Of a stretch of DNA of 64,000 nucleotides, positions 1-43,867 are shown piece after piece. The position numbers and the translations under genes are program-made. This DNA comes from Aneurinibacillus thermoaerophilus. GTDB taxonomy: Bacteria; Bacillota; Bacilli; Aneurinibacillales; Aneurinibacillaceae. Each line of letters begins with the position of its first letter. The stretch's first letter is position 1. The notes below the pieces were generated by a model that worked only from the letters and a program-made list of their open reading frames with translations, was not told the DNA's origin and made no database searches. Location of the stretch: assembly GCF_900099925.1 (NCBI RefSeq), contig NZ_FNDE01000006.1, positions 1 to 64,000 on the forward strand, given 5' to 3'.

Positions 1-3
1 GGT

Positions 4-244
4 CCATGGGCTGCCTGGAAGCTGCTATCTTCCAGCATGGGTTGTCAGAGAGAACAGCCTGCGGGTTAGAAGTACAAACGAGTACCAGGGAAACAGACTT
101 ACGAAGTAGTCAAAGCTACAGGAGGATAGAGAGTTTCCCTGAACGATCCTAAGAATCATTGTCCAGAGACATCATGAAAAGTCCAGTCCCATGATCTGGA
201 TGTGCGTGGTGTCCCCCTCCCCTTCTTTACAGTTACAGGGGAGG
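4..244 (+). promoter_or_regulatory. Structured 5' leader upstream of rng (candidate cis-regulatory RNA)
   Basis: This stretch of about 340 bases before the rng start holds no gene but can form several helices. CTGGAAG 15-21 pairs with CTTCCAG 29-35, and CCATG 4-8 with CATGG 36-40. CAGGGAAAC 86-94 pairs with GTTTCCCTG 133-141. TCCAG/ATCATG (162-176) pairs with CATGAT/CTGGA (190-200). CCTCCCCT 216-223 pairs with AGGGGAGG 237-244. I do not recognise it as a known riboswitch or leader class. RNase E of E. coli controls its own synthesis through leader hairpins, so autoregulation by RNase G is a reasonable inference, but it is not shown here. The sequence could also be the tail of something that begins before the window. 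Confidence 0.45.
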
Positions 245-341
245 AAAATATATCTTGGTTTTTTGGTTAATAGTCTCTCGAATTCAACTGGAAATTCGTG
301 ATTTTGAGGGGCTTAAACATACTATACGAGGAGGACAACTG

Positions 342-1826
342 TTGAAGCAAATAATCATCAACTGTACCGGCCGCGAAGCGAGAGTGGCCATGTTGGAAGG
401 CGGTCGGTTGGTTGAATTATACATCGAACGGCCGGAAGGGCGACGGATCGTCGGCAACATTTATAAAGGACGGGTAGAAAATGTGTTGCCAGGCATGCAG
501 GCGGCATTTATCGATATCGGTATGGAAAAAAATGCGTATTTATACGTAGCTGACTGTTTGCCACCGGAGACAGAGCCTGAGGAAGGGAAGAGGCCCTCCA
601 TTAATGAGCTGATTACGCAAGGCCAAGAGATTATCGTTCAAGTCAGTAAAGAAGCGTTTGGCACGAAAGGTGCTAAAGTAACAACACAGCTCTCTTTGCC
701 TGGGCGCTACATTGTATATTTGCCGAATGTGACCTATATTGGGGTATCACGTCGCATACGCAAGGAAAAAGAACGCGAACGTCTACGCCGGATGGCACGC
801 GAGATTCTGGGACCGAATGAGGGAATCATTATCCGGACGATGGCCGAGGGAATGAGTCGAGCTGAGCTGGAGGCGGACGTTTCATTTCTGAGAGCGTGTT
901 GGGAACAGGTGTGGAGCGAGAAAAAGCATGTTCGCCCGCCCGCGCTCGTCTACCAAGACTTAGATCTTGTCTCCCGCGTGGTGCGCGATTTTGTAGATGA
1001 AGAAGTAGAAGAAATCATGATTGACAGTCGCCCGCGCTACGCGGAAGTTCGAGCATTGCTCGCCCGTTACCGGCCTGAGTGGGAGCAGAAAATTCGATTG
1101 TATACCGGGGCCGAGGAGATTTTTTCTTATTATGGCTTGGACGGGGAAATCGAACGGGCGCTGAGACGGAAAGTATGGCTAAAGAGCGGCGGTTATTTGG
1201 TCATTGATCAGACGGAAGCGATGACCGTTTTTGATGTAAATACCGGCAAGTATACAGGCAGTCATACCCTTGAGGAAACGGTTCTGAAGACCAACCTGGA
1301 AGCATGTCGTGAAATTGTCCGCCAGCTTCGTTTGCGCAACATTGGCGGCATTGTTATTATCGATTTCATTGACATGGAGAAAGAAGAAAATCGGCTCCAG
1401 GTGTTGGAGTGTATGGAAGGGGAGTTGCGGAAAGACAAGACAAAGACACAAGTGCTTGGATTTACCCGCTTGGGGCTGCTTGAACTGACACGCAAAAAAG
1501 AGCGGCAAAATCTTGCTGATATCTTGCTGCGCGTGTGTCCTTGCTGCGAAGGAACAGGCAGAATCACAGCCGAAGAGACGCTTGCGAGTGCGCTGGAACG
1601 CGAACTCGCAAGCTTCAGTCACGATGACCGCGTGGAAGCGGTCTTGCTTGAAGTGCATCCCCATATCGCCCGCGTGTTTGTGGAACGGGACTATATAGAA
1701 GAATTGCGGAATAGCACGAGCATTGCTCTCTATATTGCGGAAAATTCTGCTCTTGATCAACAGCGGTATCGCATCCTGTTTGCGGGGAGTGAAGCAGAAG
1801 CGCGGAGACGCTTACAGAAACAGTGA
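342..1826 (+). CDS. rng: Ribonuclease E/G family endoribonuclease
   Basis: Single-strand-specific, 5'-end-sensing endoribonuclease of RNA processing and decay, 494 aa, close to E. coli RNase G (489 aa). An S1-like RNA-binding domain lies near residues 35-125. The DNase-I-like catalytic part carries VFDVNTG with D298 and IIDFIDM with D341, the same 43-residue spacing as the two metal-binding aspartates of RNase E/G. The zinc-link CPCC (C399, C402) follows. I chose the TTG at 342 because GAGGAGG at 328-334 sits 7 bases ahead; the frame is open from a TTG at 255, but that adds an atypical N-terminus. It lies ahead of rplU, an order that differs from B. subtilis, which has no RNase E/G. Confidence 0.9.
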   Translation: MKQIIINCTGREARVAMLEGGRLVELYIERPEGRRIVGNIYKGRVENVLPGMQAAFIDIGMEKNAYLYVADCLPPETEPEEGKRPSINELITQGQEIIVQVSKEAFGTKGAKVTTQLSLPGRYIVYLPNVTYIGVSRRIRKEKERERLRRMAREILGPNEGIIIRTMAEGMSRAELEADVSFLRACWEQVWSEKKHVRPPALVYQDLDLVSRVVRDFVDEEVEEIMIDSRPRYAEVRALLARYRPEWEQKIRLYTGAEEIFSYYGLDGEIERALRRKVWLKSGGYLVIDQTEAMTVFDVNTGKYTGSHTLEETVLKTNLEACREIVRQLRLRNIGGIVIIDFIDMEKEENRLQVLECMEGELRKDKTKTQVLGFTRLGLLELTRKKERQNLADILLRVCPCCEGTGRITAEETLASALERELASFSHDDRVEAVLLEVHPHIARVFVERDYIEELRNSTSIALYIAENSALDQQRYRILFAGSEAEARRRLQKQ

Positions 1827-1895: not shown

Positions 1896-2003
1896 CTGGT
1901 GTGCTTGACACCTCAAGCATACTACAACCGCTCGATTAAGGTTTGCAAGCCGGCGTATATGCGCCGCACCGGATATCGGCGAGTCTTAGTATATAGGGGA
2001 GGT
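1896..2003 (+). promoter_or_regulatory. Probable L21 ribosomal-protein leader
   Basis: The gap between rng and rplU contains a possible -10 (TATGAT, 1873-1878) and then a leader that can fold. GGCG 1952-1955 pairs with CGCC 1962-1965 around TATATG, and flanking CGCTCGAT/ATCGGCGAG sequence can close an outer helix. Firmicutes rplU operons commonly carry an autoregulatory L21 leader at this place. The assignment rests on position and folding potential only. Confidence 0.45.
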
Positions 2004-40149: not shown

Positions 40150-40417
40150 AATTGTGACAAAAGGATATTGATCTGATGAAGGGCACAAAGTAGTCAGGAA
40201 GTACTGCCGCACAGAGAGGAATGTCAGAGGCTGGAAGCATTCCCGACAGCTCTTGATGAACGACAACCCGGAAGACCTTGTGGAAACAAACACATGGCGT
40301 GTTCCCGCGTTACGGGATATAGAGCGGGATATTTATATATCCAAGCAGGGTGGTACCACGGGAATAAATAGCAATCTCTCGTCCCTGACAACTGTGTCAG
40401 TGGCGGGAGATTTTTTA
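40150..40417 (+). promoter_or_regulatory. T-box leader of hisS-aspS, apparent Asp specifier
   Basis: This leader fills the gap between hemZ and hisS. Stem I shows CAGAGAG followed by GGAATG...CATTCC. The T-box sequence AGCAGGGTGGTACCACGGG lies near 40345-40362, and the terminator AATCTCTCGTCCC...GGCGGGAGATT plus Ts at 40373-40417. Placed against the alaS T-box in this window (GAA-T-GCT), the specifier position reads GAA-C-GAC, so the codon is GAC (Asp) at 40262-40264; I see no His codon (CAC) there. Uncharged tRNA would stabilise the antiterminator and switch on both synthetase genes. Confidence 0.88.
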
Positions 40418-43682: not shown

Positions 43683-43867
43683 AAGAACCCTGTGATGTGC
43701 GTGAGCGACCCGTTTGTTTTGTACCAACACTAATGAAAAGGGAAACTGGGGTTCCGCTGTGGCGCAGAAGCCGCCCTGAATTGAGCGGACCTGTAAAGCA
43801 GCGGACAGGTCTCCCACCTGCCAGAGCAGGTTCAAAACACAGGCATCACGGCATTCCTGGGGTTCTT
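43683..43867 (+). ncRNA. ssrS: 6S RNA (bsrA type)
   Basis: The ends AAGAACCC (43683-43690) and GGGGTTCTT (43859-43867) close a long, mostly self-complementary rod of about 185 nt. A promoter stands upstream and a terminator downstream. The gene for 6S-1 RNA in B. subtilis occupies exactly this place, between aspS and the tcdA (yrvM) gene. 6S RNA mimics an open promoter and binds the housekeeping RNA polymerase. The exact 5' end is uncertain by about ten bases. Confidence 0.87.

What the first reader, a model, noticed from the sequence alone, without database searches (positions are those of the whole stretch)
4..244. Multi-helix leader upstream of RNase G gene
Four separate helices with perfect stems of 5 to 9 bp are packed into 240 bases with no ORF: 15-21/29-35, 86-94/133-141, 162-176/190-200 and 216-223/237-244. 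The last one hides a GGGGAGG just ahead of an in-frame TTG at 255. RNase E homologues often control their own mRNA through leader structures, but no such element is known to me in the Firmicutes rng context. It could be a new class of cis-regulatory RNA or the 3' part of a separate small RNA.
Basis: partly seen in the sequence, partly recalled or inferred. Interest (0 to 1): 0.55.

Follow-up and report, generated by a model that had tools for sequence, protein, structure and literature searches.

The report
RNA-guided transposon end at ribosome-binding site
The folded stretch in front of the RNase G gene is not a switch for that gene but the end of a jumping gene (IS110 family) whose guide RNA, read from the opposite strand, carries a copy of the ribosome's start-site-finding sequence and so appears to steer the element into the start signals of genes.

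Summary
Window base 1 is a contig edge. Bases 1-328 are the left end (LE) of an IS110-family insertion sequence, repeated in this genome (same genus as Aneurinibacillus danicus) and inserted between spoIVFB and rng. The structured RNA is real but on the MINUS strand: the element's bridge RNA. Across 19 left ends its helices covary (45 double-change cells, 0 of 500 shuffles; 41 G-U versus 5 A-C cells). Its target loop carries CCUCCU and ..AAG, matching Shine-Dalgarno (SD) AAGGAGG. All seven readable LEs here end at an SD (rng, gpsA, xseB, cobQ, cstA, kdpC, a relic at hfq). In 48 of 61 LE junctions a start codon with an open frame lies 10-13 nt away (background 7.6%). Guides and targets vary together (p = 5e-5, the permutation floor), as do donor guide and right end. 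Joined ends form TTGACA-17-TATA(A/G/C)T. Five of seven joined sites are continuous in another Heyndrickxia genome. rng starts at TTG 342. SD targeting is published for IS900 and bridge RNAs in 2024; an anti-SD bridge-RNA guide was not found in my searches. Transcription and activity are untested.

The parts
1..328 (-). Left-end (LE) noncoding region of an IS110-family insertion sequence, cut at the contig edge; the transposase would lie beyond base 1, reading leftwards
   Evidence: Dispersed repeat; same sequence directly upstream of an IS110 transposase in G002/A. danicus; LE starts CT-CGTATA in 30 of 32 related loci
1..185 (-). Bridge RNA, part present in the window (206-nt homologous stretch is complete to ..ATACGCGA in the copy at contig C35); true RNA ends not mapped
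   Evidence: Covarying structure, G-U bias to the minus strand, model hit at 1-185 minus, 172.5 bits
142..160 (-). Hairpin 5' of the target-binding loop (AATGATTCTTAGGATCGTT)
   Evidence: Helix 1
86..141 (-). Target-binding loop: basal stem 86-94/133-141, invariant inner hairpin 106-119
   Evidence: Helices 2 and 3; an alternative partner for the foot of the stem is equally supported
120..128 (-). Left target guide (LTG) UAUCCUC-CU, an anti-Shine-Dalgarno sequence
   Evidence: Position by analogy with IS621 layout (passages); matches left flanks element by element
98..105 (-). Right target guide (RTG) UUCGUA-AG
   Evidence: Matches right flanks (CTTACG.. in 3 of 7 own right ends); concordance over elements
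56..65 (-). Left donor guide (LDG) CCCGCAGGCT, resembling the element's right end ACCGCAGGACT
   Evidence: Three variable bases follow the right end in 20 elements, p = 5e-5
1..49 (-).
   Evidence: Helices 5-7, 8 pairs with changes on both sides
216..244 (-). Spacer hairpin between LE start and bridge RNA, not conserved in sequence
286..296 (-). AATTTCCAGTT, conserved near the LE; a similar AATTTCCAATT lies near the right end
   Evidence: Alignments; function unknown
321..326 (-). TATAGT, -10-like box that would pair with TTGACA of the right end (17-nt spacer) only in the excised circle
   Evidence: promoter activity not tested
329..330 (.). Core dinucleotide (CT on the element strand, AG on the rng strand) shared by element and target
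   Evidence: Both ends plus single-CT empty sites
329..334 (+). Shine-Dalgarno AGGAGG of rng: core AG plus target-derived GAGG
   Evidence: Sequence; 35 of 61 LE junctions read AGGAGG
342..1826 (+). rng (RNase G family), 494 aa, start TTG 342
   Evidence: PF10150, TIGR00757; homology with six relatives from residue 1 or 2

Best explanation
Window 1-328 is the left end of an IS110-family insertion sequence that recombined into the Shine-Dalgarno sequence of rng. In the excised circle the right and left ends would join and form a sigma-70-type promoter reading into the left end (sequence shown, activity inferred). The transcript would contain a bridge RNA of about 200 nt on the window's minus strand (structure shown by covariation, transcription inferred). 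Its target-binding loop holds an anti-Shine-Dalgarno guide: LTG ..CCUC-CU pairs with the SD strand and RTG ..A-AG with the other strand (concordance shown, pairing inferred). Its donor-binding loop matches the element's own right end (LDG concordance shown). The DEDD recombinase loaded with this RNA then inserts the circle at CCTC/CT/TT, in one orientation, with the left end next to the start codon. The gene keeps AGGAGG at its old distance from the start codon, so translation initiation is probably spared, while the operon is split by an element of about 1.8 kb (length known from relatives, not in this genome).
For: Dispersed repeat with all seven readable LE ends at SDs; seven exact right ends in the same genome, four with the expected upstream gene (SpoIVFB, PlsY, XseA, KdpB) in the flank; IS110 transposase next to the same LE in a relative and Pfam/NCBIfam/PDB matches to IS110 and IS621 for related full-length transposases; covariation and G-U bias; start codon near 48 of 61 junctions against 7.6% background; guide-target concordance and donor concordance; empty sites in 5 of 7 cases; uninterrupted spoIVFB-rng in 6 of 6 relatives.
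Against: No transcript, protein or mobility data. The transposase N-terminus was not found in this genome's contigs and the gap between contigs C40 and C51 is not assembled, so a complete copy at rng is inferred. 13 of 61 junctions lack a start codon with an open frame of 50 codons; a few of these are probably false junctions, others (such as L023, L051, L057) look like SD-like sites without a clear gene. AGGAGG sites in the window have such a start in 11 of 22 cases, so part of the gene-start bias would follow from the motif alone. Own LTG and flanks share mainly CCTC, little beyond. Related elements are not independent, which permutation over elements only partly handles. Positions of the guides rest on analogy with IS621.
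Confidence: 0.88

Rival explanations
1. A cis-regulatory leader RNA of rng on the plus strand.
For: Stable stems in 1-244 directly upstream of rng.
Against: Same sequence before six other genes; absent in six of six relatives; G-U 41 against A-C 5 cells puts the RNA on the other strand.
Confidence: 0.02
2. Only a solo left-end relic stands at rng (as at hfq), with no complete element between spoIVFB and rng.
For: The hfq copy is such a fragment (about 200 nt, next to miaA); the gap between C40 and C51 is not assembled; the transposase N-terminus was not found in the contigs.
Against: The rng copy is identical or nearly so to the kdpC and gpsA copies, and a right end sits on the contig that carries spoIVFB, so both ends are present; contig breaks are what a repeated element produces.
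Confidence: 0.05
3. The element goes to gene starts because of protein-based recognition, promoter proximity or selection against other sites, and the CCUCCU in the RNA is incidental.
For: Selection against disruptive insertions would also enrich gene starts; the CCTC part is shared by most elements and so cannot be tested by variation.
Against: Both guide halves vary with the target at -4, -5 and at +2, +3, +5, including AGGAGA, AGGAGC and other variants; orientation and distance to the start codon are fixed.
Confidence: 0.07

Closest known systems
IS621 and other IS110-group elements with bridge RNA (PMC11208160, passages seen)
   Same: Noncoding LE upstream of the recombinase gene, structured RNA with target and donor loops, CT core, promoter formed across the circle junction, DEDD recombinase
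   Different: IS621 is guided to REP elements (ATCAGGCCTAC); here the guide is an anti-SD, the RNA is not recognised by Rfam, and the LE is longer (about 370-630 nt to the transposase in most loci)
IS900 of Mycobacterium avium subsp. paratuberculosis (PMC8141618, passages seen; Doran 1997 seen only as a title in its reference list)
   Same: IS110 family; published target motif CATGNNNNNNTCTCCTT reads as antisense start codon plus anti-SD
   Different: Another phylum; I did not have its sequence, so whether its RNA carries an anti-SD guide is untested
IS1111-type elements with seekRNA (PMC11187229, abstract and passages seen)
   Same: RNA from a noncoding end selects the target
   Different: Their noncoding region lies downstream of the transposase gene; here it lies upstream

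Membership tests
IS110 family (IS110 group) | DEDD_Tnp_IS110 plus Transposase_20 domains | tested here: met
   Full-length relatives L041 and L050: PF01548 and PF02371, NF033542 above cut-off; the A. danicus fragment has PF01548. The own transposase is not assembled; only its C-terminal end is seen at contig edges
IS110 family (IS110 group) | Long noncoding left end upstream of the transposase | tested here: met
IS110 family (IS110 group) | Insertion at a short core without further duplication | tested here: met
   5 of 7 single-CT joined sites of H. coagulans 36D1 continuous in strain DSM 1
IS110 bridge RNA | Conserved structured RNA in the LE on the transposase strand | tested here: met
IS110 bridge RNA | Guides matching target and donor | tested here: met
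   (statistical concordance; pairing itself not shown)
IS110 bridge RNA | Promoter across the circle junction | tested here: inconclusive
   TTGACA-17-TATA(A/G/C)T in 17 of 20 junctions; in the other three a wrong LE was picked, and their LE reads TATAGT, TATATT, TATAGT. Activity not testable here
IS110 bridge RNA | RNA is expressed and bound by the recombinase | not testable with these tools
   No expression data
SD-targeting element like IS900 | Insertion at the SD in fixed orientation with the antisense start codon on one side | tested here: met
   48 of 61 junctions; 3 of 3 fetched plasmid elements abut annotated gene starts
cis-regulatory leader of rng | Conservation upstream of rng in relatives | tested here: not met
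   Absent in 6 of 6 relatives

The most novel reading that the evidence does not exclude
A Firmicutes-wide clade of IS110 elements has turned the ribosome's anti-Shine-Dalgarno into a DNA guide, so that very many gene starts are mild landing sites, and the same CCUCCU loop also works as antisense RNA: it pairs with the AGGAGG in front of the element's own transposase in the junction transcript and keeps transposase translation low until the bridge RNA is loaded or cut off.
Probability: 0.12. Interest if true: 0.75.

Novelty: new member of a known kind. Interest (0 to 1): 0.55.

Why it matters
It offers a direct explanation of why some IS110 elements sit exactly at ribosome-binding sites: the guide RNA holds an anti-SD. 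One short guide then addresses a signal shared by many genes, in one orientation, with SD and spacing kept, which should reduce damage to the host. Natural guides drift together with SD variants (AGGAGG, AGGAGA, AGGAGC), a ready data set for bridge-RNA targeting rules. It also points to an annotation trap: structured antisense RNA of an IS in front of host genes such as rng, hfq or gpsA can be mistaken for a leader.

Tried and rejected
Introns, TnpB/IscB guide RNAs and similar elements were considered from the sequence (recall, no separate test) and dropped: Rfam gave nothing in 1-400 except a chance miRNA match on the minus strand (E 1.2), and the neighbouring protein is IS110. DNA searches found the LE in 3 of 7 genomes of the genus and 3 of 15 of the order. 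A promoter scan found no sigma-70-like site in 1-340, so how rng is transcribed past the element is open. A plasmid search with the LE gave 3 partial matches. Six paper searches listed no paper whose title or abstract describes an anti-SD bridge-RNA guide; I read passages of five papers only, and subscription papers and preprints are not held. The Geobacillus IS paper (passages) reports DDE-type elements; the JIII-386 genome paper (passages) uses Shine-Dalgarno in another sense.

Errors on the way: the join of the rng flanks was offset by two bases; the right join follows. One search used a pattern that shifted the LTG by one base in newly added elements and gave p = 0.16 (all) and 0.06 (one Anoxybacillus element) for LTG; one search repeats it with the register fixed, the reason being that the base next to the core was visibly missing in the printed guides. 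The first test (32 LT insertions of 19 elements, 30 RT insertions of 16 elements) had given p = 0.006 and 0.0002. In one search three elements (L033, L041, L044) had a wrong LE picked, which affects the junction column only.

Rows dropped: alignment A1 holds the own copy plus 18 of the 32 loci; L028, L034 and L049 failed the pattern and 11 were identical copies. One search used the set (L034 had no guides) plus 23 of the 41 loci; the rest were duplicates, fragments or did not fit the pattern (L097 and L101 by eye show an anti-SD guide at an SD). One search counts all 61 junctions that an automatic pattern found, including some that are probably not LE junctions (L048 minus strand, L091). Of 423 plasmid records with a transposase match (30 listed) I opened three.

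Full report
What was claimed and what is there. The inverted repeats are at the given positions, but folding alone is only mildly unusual (z -1.90). Window base 1 is the first base of contig C51, and a search of the same genome shows that 1-335 is a dispersed repeat: near-identical copies at the ends of C35 and C32, its last 93 bases at the ends of C43, C21 and C14, a 79% fragment in C69 and a partial one in C9. The assembly breaks at this repeat.

The copies end at gene starts. In all seven places where the end of the repeat could be read it stops at ..CATACTATACGAGGAGG just before a start codon: rng, gpsA, xseB, cobQ, cstA, kdpC and, in the older fragment, hfq (identities). For rng the start is therefore TTG 342 with AGGAGG 329-334, not TTG 255.

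What the repeat is. In another genome of the genus (G002; its contig matches Aneurinibacillus danicus NBRC 102444 in length and sequence) the first 137 bases of the repeat lie directly upstream of an IS110 transposase fragment reading the other way. A scan of bacterial genomes with that protein gave 32 loci, all in Firmicutes by their titles; in 30 of 32 the region upstream of the transposase begins CT-CGTAT. Right ends, read in 26 loci, typically finish ..TTGACATATTACCGCAGGA-CT (L043 lacks one), and the own genome has seven exact copies of that sequence. Four of their flanks carry the 3' end of the gene expected before one of the targets: an M50 peptidase (SpoIVFB) for rng, PlsY for gpsA, XseA for xseB, KdpB for kdpC (PlsY, SpoIVFB and KdpB are named from sequence and position, the family search giving only broad domains or not run for PlsY). 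In six of six relatives of the genus the SpoIVFB homologue ends 37-47 nt before rng with nothing between.

Exact insertion. Flanks of seven insertions in Heyndrickxia coagulans 36D1, joined with a single CT, match a stretch spanning the joint in strain DSM 1 = ATCC 7050 for five of seven (90-100% identity; two gave no match). The element is 1,781 bp there and leaves no duplication beyond the core. Its length in the window's genome is unknown, since the middle is not assembled: a search with the transposase N-terminus found nothing in the own contigs, and only the C-terminal end is seen at contig edges.

The RNA is on the minus strand. Nineteen left ends aligned in transposase orientation support a structure of 34 pairs: 96.3% of cells paired, 12 pairs with changes on both sides, 45 such cells, none of 500 shuffles as high on these, and the signal collapses when partners are slid; the count of further pair types does not exceed shuffles (164 of 500). 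G-U cells number 41 against 5 A-C cells and 19 other mismatches, as expected for the minus strand of the window only. An alternative pairing of the bases at the foot of the target-binding loop is supported as well. Rfam 15 has no matching family at this place. A covariance model finds the RNA in 23 of 398 genomes of the class, the own genome and G002 included.

Guides. In the layout published for IS621 (PMC11208160, passages) LTG has the sequence of the left target, RTG is complementary to the right target, and the core is in both. Here LTG reads ..UAUCCUC-CU and RTG UUCGUA-AG. Flanks were compared with each element's own guides and with guides of other elements. Over 55 insertions of 29 elements the LTG match is 5.09 of 8 against 4.34 permuted; over 48 insertions of 23 elements the RTG match is 3.40 of 6 against 2.44; p = 5e-5 in both, the floor of 20,000 permutations, and unchanged with one Anoxybacillus element only (an earlier misregistered run is told under Tried and rejected). 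The gain lies at -4 and -5 and at +2, +3 and +5. The donor guide follows the right end likewise: 2.65 of 3 variable bases against 1.95 in 20 elements, p = 5e-5.

Why gene starts. The target CCTC-CT-TT is the antisense of AAGGAGG. Of 61 distinct LE junctions, 48 have a start codon (42 ATG) within 9-13 nt of the core, in fact at 10-13 nt and mostly at 11 or 12, followed by at least 50 open codons or a frame open to the end of the locus; the background for any position of the window is 9,618 of 125,800 (7.6%), and 11 of 22 for AGGAGG sites. The 13 failures include probable false junctions and SD-like sites without a clear gene. Three plasmid elements that I opened, from Enterococcus faecium, Bacillus arachidis and Priestia megaterium, abut gene starts annotated by others, and distant relatives found by the model show the same layout by eye (L096, L097, L100, L101). 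One of the 61 sites is the start of another IS110-type transposase gene (L111).

The protein. Full-length relatives carry both IS110 domains and match the NCBI model 'IS110 family RNA-guided transposase'; the nearest solved structure by sequence is IS621 (8wt6, E 2.6e-9), clear in the C-terminal part and weak in the N-terminal part.

Consequence for rng. The gene keeps AGGAGG with unchanged spacing. What transcribes it is unknown: no sigma-70-like promoter was found in 1-340.

What is known. Bridge RNAs and seekRNAs of this family were published in 2024, and IS900 has a published target motif CATGNNNNNNTCTCCTT (PMC8141618, passage), which reads as antisense start codon plus anti-SD. My searches of an open-access library without preprints listed no paper that joins the two as an anti-SD guide. 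I therefore file it as a new member of a known kind, with an explanation of SD targeting that may be new but is a natural extension of published work.

Noticed in passing
window 1916-1996, 40167-40389, 43684-43867: Rfam finds an L21 leader (before rplU), a T-box leader and 6S RNA in the window; ordinary.
   Followed up: no
L016-L021 (own genome contigs C9, C41, C47, C14, C73, C58): Six other IS110-type transposase matches lie in this genome; none matched the query fragment and their targets were not studied.
   Followed up: no
window 286-296 and right ends: AATTTCCA is conserved near both ends of these elements as a direct repeat flanking the junction promoter; perhaps a binding site.
   Followed up: no
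window 216-244 and the same spacer in relatives: 10 of 20 elements have a perfect hairpin of 10 bp or more between LE start and bridge RNA, with differing sequences; purpose unknown.
   Followed up: partly
L010 4700-4900 (C69, between miaA and hfq): A decayed LE fragment still supplies the GAGGAGG before hfq, with no right end seen nearby.
   Followed up: partly
L061 (C6 end): The xseA frame reads into the SD of xseB, so the insertion should replace the last few residues of XseA by element-encoded ones.
   Followed up: no
L111 (G368): One element sits at the start of another IS110-type transposase gene, so relatives of the element are themselves targets.
   Followed up: no
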